64,000 nt of DNA from contig DYLS01000008.1 in assembly GCA_020721965.1 (NCBI GenBank), positions 1-64,000 of the forward strand. The letters are read 5' to 3'. Source of the stretch: Blastopirellula marina (lineage in GTDB: Bacteria; Planctomycetota; Planctomycetia; Pirellulales; Thermoguttaceae). Of the stretch, positions 62,761 to 64,000 are shown one piece after another. Below the pieces are notes generated by a model, which was given only the letters and a program-made list of their open reading frames with translations, searched no databases and was not told the DNA's origin. How positions within the stretch are numbered: the stretch's first letter is position 1; each line of letters starts with the position of its first letter. The position numbers and the translations under genes were made by a program.

Positions 62761-62927
62761 CTGGACTTTTGCAAACTGCTCCCCTCTCCCTCTGGGAGAG
62801 GGCCAGGGGGTGAGGGTTTGGTCAAATCAGACAAACAAGGCAAACCATTTTCGCGCCTAATTGCCCACAGGCTAACCCTCTCCTAGGGGCCTAGAGGGGC
62901 TTGTGCCCCCAATTTGCAAAAGTCCAG
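62761..62927. mobile_element. MITE-like element with perfect 15-base terminal inverted repeats
   Basis: Ends CTGGACTTTTGCAAA (62761-62775) and TTTGCAAAAGTCCAG (62913-62927) are perfect inverted copies. Inside is a 9-bp hairpin CCCTCTCCC-TCT-GGGAGAGGG (62782-62802). No ORF and no obvious target duplication are seen. It sits in the gap between two minus-strand genes. Confidence 0.65.
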
Positions 62928-62947: not shown

Positions 62948-64000
62948 TCAAGGTAGGGTGAATAGTGTCACCGTATCGCCCGACCCGCAGGCAATCGTCG
63001 GCCGAGGTCCACTATCGGCGAGCATCTGGACGGGCTGGGAAAACGTCACCTCGGCAGCATATTTGATTTGCCCACCCCTCGCCATGAACAGCCGGCCGCC
63101 GCCCAGCGCCAAAACTGTCCCGTCCTCGTATTGCACGGCTTGACGGAGCGTCTGGCCCAAATACGTGCGCGCTACCACTTCGCCATTGGAGGCGATGGCC
63201 AGCAGATAGCCGCTATCCAGACAGGCGAGGAGTTCTGCCGAACTGGTACACTTTAGGGCCGATTGCGGTTGCGCTTTCGCCGACGCAGAGTCAAGAGCTT
63301 GCAGACGCCACAGGCCGAGCGGCCGGGCACCACAATCGACCCGCCAACGCTCCACGTTGTTCAAGCCCACACACCGAACTTGGCCCGCAGGACCGTCCAC
63401 GCCAAGCACAAGCGCTTTGTCCTTCCCAAAGAAAAGCGGCATGATCGCGGTCAAGCAGGCGGGGTGAGACCATGAAACAAGGTCGCCCCATCCCAACCGC
63501 CATGGGACACCGGCCGCGCCGGCAGCGCCGCGGTGGTCACAAATCAGGCAACTTCCATGGATCGAGGGGTCCTCGGTACCGAACAGGACCTCTTGCTTGC
63601 CATCGCCGTTAAGGTCGGCGAGGTGGAGCGTCGCGGGCGTTCCCCACTCCGAACCGCGTCGCCAAAGGATCTTGCCCTCGTCGTCAAGGCAATAGAGATG
63701 ATTATCCGTCACGCCAACCAGCACTTCATGGCGTCCGTCTCCGTCCAGGTCGCCGGACTTGAGGGCGCGGACCGTCGACCGCCCATGCGTCCAACTGATG
63801 ATGTAGACTGTCTCGCTGAACGGCAACTGGGTCTGCCACCGGGTCGAACCGTCCGCTCCCACGGCAACGACTTGTCCGCTGTCGTCGCCCAGGAGCGTGA
63901 GGACTTCGCTGCCCTTTTTCAGCGGCGCGATGCGCCGCACCGGAGACGTTCCAGCACGTTTCCAACGAAGCCGGCCCTGGAAGTCGACGGCCGCGACCTG
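62948..64000 (-). CDS. FG-GAP/PQQ-like propeller protein, 5' end outside window
   Basis: The frame is open to the window edge (351 codons visible). Repeats combine PQQ-like and FG-GAP/VCBS features: KSGDLDGDGRHEVLVGVTDN, LADLNGDGKQEVLFGTED and VAAVDFQGRLRWKRAG. The DxDGDG-type loops may bind calcium. C-terminal blades end with GDTVTLFTLP just before the stop. Probably exported, but the N terminus is missing. It is next to two glycosidase genes on the same strand. Confidence 0.75.
   Translation of the reverse strand, partial: QVAAVDFQGRLRWKRAGTSPVRRIAPLKKGSEVLTLLGDDSGQVVAVGADGSTRWQTQLPFSETVYIISWTHGRSTVRALKSGDLDGDGRHEVLVGVTDNHLYCLDDEGKILWRRGSEWGTPATLHLADLNGDGKQEVLFGTEDPSIHGSCLICDHRGAAGAAGVPWRLGWGDLVSWSHPACLTAIMPLFFGKDKALVLGVDGPAGQVRCVGLNNVERWRVDCGARPLGLWRLQALDSASAKAQPQSALKCTSSAELLACLDSGYLLAIASNGEVVARTYLGQTLRQAVQYEDGTVLALGGGRLFMARGGQIKYAAEVTFSQPVQMLADSGPRPTIACGSGDTVTLFTLP

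What the first reader, a model, noticed from the sequence alone, without database searches (positions are those of the whole stretch)
62761..62927. MITE-like element with perfect 15-base inverted ends
CTGGACTTTTGCAAA and its exact inverse bound 167 bases containing a perfect 9-bp hairpin (CCCTCTCCC type). Non-coding and close to a gene start, it has the form of a non-autonomous transposon and may bring a promoter to the glycosidase gene.
Basis: seen in the sequence. Interest (0 to 1): 0.5.

Follow-up and report, generated by a model that had tools for sequence, protein, structure and literature searches.

The report
Miniature transposon family with IS701-type ends
A 167-base piece of DNA beside a sugar-cutting-enzyme gene is one of at least 70 copies of a genuine "jumping" miniature element in this planctomycete-type genome; it carries no gene and was probably moved by a transposase of the IS701 family that is found, with the same ends, in related bacteria but not in this genome; it is a good new example of an ordinary kind of element.

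Summary
Window 62761-62927 is 167 bp bounded by perfect 15-bp inverted repeats; 20 shuffles of the window gave no such pair. It is a real MITE. The same genome holds 24 two-flanked copies 86-100% identical to it, 46 more of the same length in a diverged sister subfamily, and 125 exact copies of the 15-mer (0 in the control). Of 73 end pairs, 39 are bounded by exact direct repeats of 6-8 bp (35 of them 6 bp, consensus TTATAA; chance about 0.7%), and four copies have related empty sites. The interior holds a REP-like palindrome that occurs without these ends in many relatives.

The probable driver is an IS701-family transposase: in related MAGs such elements carry CTGGACTTTTGCAA ends, one with a 6-bp duplication (TTAGAC). 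No such gene was found in this genome, so trans-mobilisation is inferred. IS701 elements are tabulated with 4-bp duplications, so strict IS701 membership is not claimed.

The window copy itself lacks a target duplication and was probably rearranged after insertion. No promoter-like site was found; the promoter idea is unsupported. Verdict: a well-documented new MITE family of a known kind, of moderate interest for its REP-derived core and 6-bp duplications.

The parts
62761..62927 (.). whole MITE, 167 bp
   Evidence: 24 two-flanked copies 86-100% identical in the genome
62761..62775 (+). left terminal inverted repeat CTGGACTTTTGCAAA
   Evidence: exact; 125 exact genome copies against 0 of the control
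62913..62927 (-). right terminal inverted repeat CTGGACTTTTGCAAA
   Evidence: exact reverse complement
62782..62802 (+). REP-like perfect palindrome CCCTCTCCC-TCT-GGGAGAGGG
   Evidence: the same 21-mer class occurs independently of these ends in relatives
62808..62816 (+). GGGTGAGGG tail of the REP-like unit
   Evidence: sequence; query positions 19-56 match REP-like units in many relatives
62873..62899 (-). degraded second, inverted REP-like unit (TAACCCTCTCCTAGGGGCCTAGAGGGG)
   Evidence: clear inverted REP copy at this place in the homologous elements L066 and L067
61727..62719 (-). flanking gene, glycosyl-hydrolase-like; the element lies 41 bp upstream of its ATG
62948..63940 (-). flanking gene, FG-GAP/beta-propeller protein; the element lies 20 bp beyond its stop codon

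Best explanation
It is a copy of a MITE family. A transposase of the IS701-like (DDE_5) type recognises the 15-bp ends in trans, moves the element, and inserts it at a TTATAA-like target with a 6-bp duplication. The interior is a passenger: a pair of inverted REP-like palindromes, partly decayed. Shown here: copies, conserved ends, 6-bp duplications, related empty sites, and IS701-family elements with the same ends in relatives. Inferred: that this transposase type did the moving; that the source gene was lost from this genome or is missing from its draft assembly; that the window copy lost its duplication by later rearrangement.
For: Dispersed copies. Exact 6-8 bp duplications in 39 of 73 own end pairs and 15 of 22 in the congener G003, against 0.7-0.9% by chance; target consensus TTATAA. 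Related empty sites for L017, L032, L151 and L179 inside other repeats. L119: 1358-bp element with ends CTGGACTTTTGCAA, an IS701-like transposase reading frame (one internal stop) and duplication TTAGAC. L120: 1432-bp element with an intact 412-aa frame and near-identical ends. Family assignment of the closely related transposase in L103: NF033540 E 1.4e-50, above cut-off; PF13546 E 4e-11. The same 15-mer flanks an unrelated 203-bp interior in G008, so the ends are the mobile unit.
Against: No DDE_5 or IS701-family gene was found in this genome or in G003, which also has many copies. IS701-family elements are tabulated with 4-bp duplications (PMC6352166), not 6. Only one autonomous-type element with an exact 6-bp duplication was seen, and its frame has a stop codon. 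The window copy has no duplication.
Confidence: 0.8

Rival explanations
1. The element is a MITE, but of a different transposase family that shares these ends by convergence; the IS701-like association in relatives is incidental.
For: No IS701-like gene in this genome or in G003, and only a weak match in G008; 6-bp rather than 4-bp duplications.
Against: Matching 14-15 bp ends at several IS701-like elements in different MAGs; the one complete duplication is also 6 bp. The PF01609 element examined for ends in this genome has other ends.
Confidence: 0.15
2. It is a REP/REPIN element moved by a RAYT (Y1 tyrosine transposase), the terminal repeats being secondary.
For: REP-like palindrome inside; one Y1_Tnp gene in the genome.
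Against: Regular 6-bp target duplications and precise 15-bp ends are expected of a DDE transposase; the ends also flank a non-REP interior (G008); 55 of 73 own copies lack the perfect palindrome; the Y1_Tnp locus has no REP palindrome or such ends nearby.
Confidence: 0.03
3. The element is a MITE by origin but is kept here because its transcript forms a regulatory or stabilising structure between the two co-directional genes (not exclusive of the main explanation).
For: Very stable fold of the minus-strand RNA, z -5.6; the gap between the genes would be only about 61 bp without it.
Against: No terminator- or promoter-like site; the consensus fold over 51 copies keeps mainly the terminal stem, with little covariation.
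Confidence: 0.1

Closest known systems
IS701 family (NF033540, PF13546 DDE_5)
   Same: Transposase of the end-sharing elements in relatives; element size 1358-1432 bp
   Different: Tabulated duplication is 4 bp (PMC6352166); here 6 bp. The MITE has no gene, and no IS701 gene is found in this genome.
Bacterial MITEs (RUP, NEMIS/Correia, Nezha, Chunjie, QMITE; PMC10969869, PMC3733652)
   Same: 70-300 bp, 15-30 bp ends, non-coding, many copies, mostly between genes
   Different: Its ends were not compared with a MITE database (none available here); the two papers do not mention an IS701-linked MITE
REP/BIME/REPIN elements (PMC3116915, PMC3733652)
   Same: Contains an extragenic palindrome and, in homologues, an inverted pair of them
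   Different: Bounded by transposon ends with target duplications; not RAYT-like

Membership tests
MITE | Short, non-coding, inverted terminal repeats | tested here: met
MITE | Multiple dispersed copies | tested here: met
MITE | Target-site duplications | tested here: met
   Met for the family (39 of 73 exact 6-8 bp); not met for the window copy itself
MITE | Empty sites | tested here: met
   Related empty sites for four other copies; not testable for the window copy because congeners do not align there
MITE | Autonomous partner with the same ends | tested here: met
   Found in relatives; not found in this genome
IS701 family, as a non-autonomous derivative | IS701 transposase associated with the same ends | tested here: met
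   (in relatives)
IS701 family, as a non-autonomous derivative | 4-bp target duplication | tested here: not met
   Duplications here are 6 bp; the 4-bp value is from PMC6352166
IS701 family, as a non-autonomous derivative | Internal sequence derived from the IS by deletion | tested here: not met
   Only about 15 bp shared with L119 ends; interior is REP-like
REPIN/RAYT | REP palindrome pair with RAYT partner | tested here: inconclusive
   Palindromes present; one Y1_Tnp gene but no REP next to it

The most novel reading that the evidence does not exclude
A subgroup of IS701-like transposons with 6-bp TTATAA-like target duplications has captured REP palindromes between its ends, turning a static extragenic palindrome into a mobile one, and the resulting MITE families outnumber and outlive the transposase in many planctomycete-type lineages.
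Probability: 0.4. Interest if true: 0.45.

Novelty: new member of a known kind. Interest (0 to 1): 0.35.

Why it matters
It links a high-copy MITE family in an uncultured bacterial group to a candidate transposase that is rare there (6 of 297 genomes of the order at E <= 1e-30), and offers a route by which REP-like palindromes may spread other than by RAYTs. It also warns that assembly breaks and intergenic repeats in such MAGs are often due to these elements.

Tried and rejected
PF01609 transposases in the genome: three fragments; the C372 element has ends GAACCTCTGCACAAT, not these. Rfam: no match near a gathering score. Promoter/terminator scan: none. Conserved internal RNA structure: only the terminal stem stands out. 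Empty site of the window copy in congeners: flanks do not align. Hidden or shifted duplication at the window copy: none of 5-8 bp within 20 bp. Papers on IS701-derived MITEs: none found in the open library.

Full report
Observation. The two 15-bp ends, the 167-bp span and the 9-bp hairpin are as described. Such a pair did not occur in 20 shuffles of the window. The element sits in the 228-bp spacer between two minus-strand genes, 41 bp upstream of the glycosidase-like ATG and 20 bp beyond the stop of the preceding gene.

A repeated, mobile family. In the same draft genome (G000, 4.95 Mb, 380 contigs) the element matches dozens of places. The exact 15-mer occurs 125 times and its reversed control none. 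From the stretches fetched, 70 copies of 150-170 bp with both flanks were aligned: 24 at 86-100% identity to the window copy (mean within group 93%) and 46 at 55-68%, which share ends, length and overall layout. Of 73 end pairs (a few are alternative pairings at one place), 35 have an exact 6-bp duplication and 4 an exact 7-8 bp one; pairing flanks of different copies gives 5 bp or more in 0.7%. The congener G003 gives 15 of 22. The target consensus is the palindrome TTATAA.

Empty sites. Four copies (L017, L032, L151, L179) lie inside other intergenic repeats. Removing the element and one duplication restores alignment to uninterrupted paralogues, cleanest for L151 against L055 (TATGTCCCAT|CATCAC vs TATGTCCCATCACCAC). 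Congener flanks at the window locus do not align, so that copy could not be tested.

The interior. Positions 19-56 match a REP-like unit common in relatives that lack the ends: for example G029 has 130 and G005 85 of the 21-nt palindromes but no exact 15-mer. Homologues in G014 and G032 show two such units in inverted order between the ends; in the window copy the second is decayed. In G008 the same ends enclose a different 203-bp interior. The ends are therefore the common mobile unit and the core is replaceable. A consensus fold of 51 copies supports mainly the terminal stem.

The transposase. Reading inward from single ends in relatives led to truncated genes of a DDE_5 protein. The longest related frame (L103) is assigned to the IS701 family (NF033540). 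In named MAGs, L119 is a 1358-bp element with both ends matching and duplication TTAGAC, but with one stop codon in its gene; L120 is a 1432-bp element with an intact 412-aa frame, near-identical ends and no exact duplication. This transposase is rare: 6 of 297 genomes of the order. Searches of the window's own genome found none. The genome is a 97%-complete draft that often breaks at these repeats, so absence is not proven.

Limits. IS701 elements are tabulated with 4-bp duplications (PMC6352166), so I do not file the MITE as a strict IS701 derivative; I say it has IS701-type ends and probably works with such an enzyme. The window copy has no duplication; rearrangement between copies or loss of one flank is the likely cause but is not shown. 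A promoter effect is unsupported; the stable transcript fold makes an RNA effect possible but untested.

Noticed in passing
L017, L013, L021, L022, L054, L151: A second, about 230-bp intergenic repeat (GTAACCGTTCACGGCTGAGC...AGATTTCTCGCTTCGCTCGAAATGACA) recurs beside and under the MITEs.
   Followed up: partly
L032, L050, L055, L057, L156, L179, L023: A third, about 100-bp intergenic repeat (AAGTCCGCCTGATCGCGTGATG...) that MITEs have inserted into.
   Followed up: partly
L097 (G008:C20:4945-4966), also G008:C148:8707-8728: Two ends joined directly as a 22-bp palindrome CTGGACTTTTGCAAAAGTCCAG, perhaps a minimal element or an excision product.
   Followed up: no
L092 (G014:C126:10-82): A 73-bp miniature with these ends and a single REP hairpin.
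   Followed up: no
L016, L158, L195, L199: Nested elements or doubled ends, some with the same duplication at both right ends.
   Followed up: no
L061 (G000:C372): A PF01609 (IS5-like, by inference) element with a broken frame and other ends (GAACCTCTGCACAAT).
   Followed up: partly
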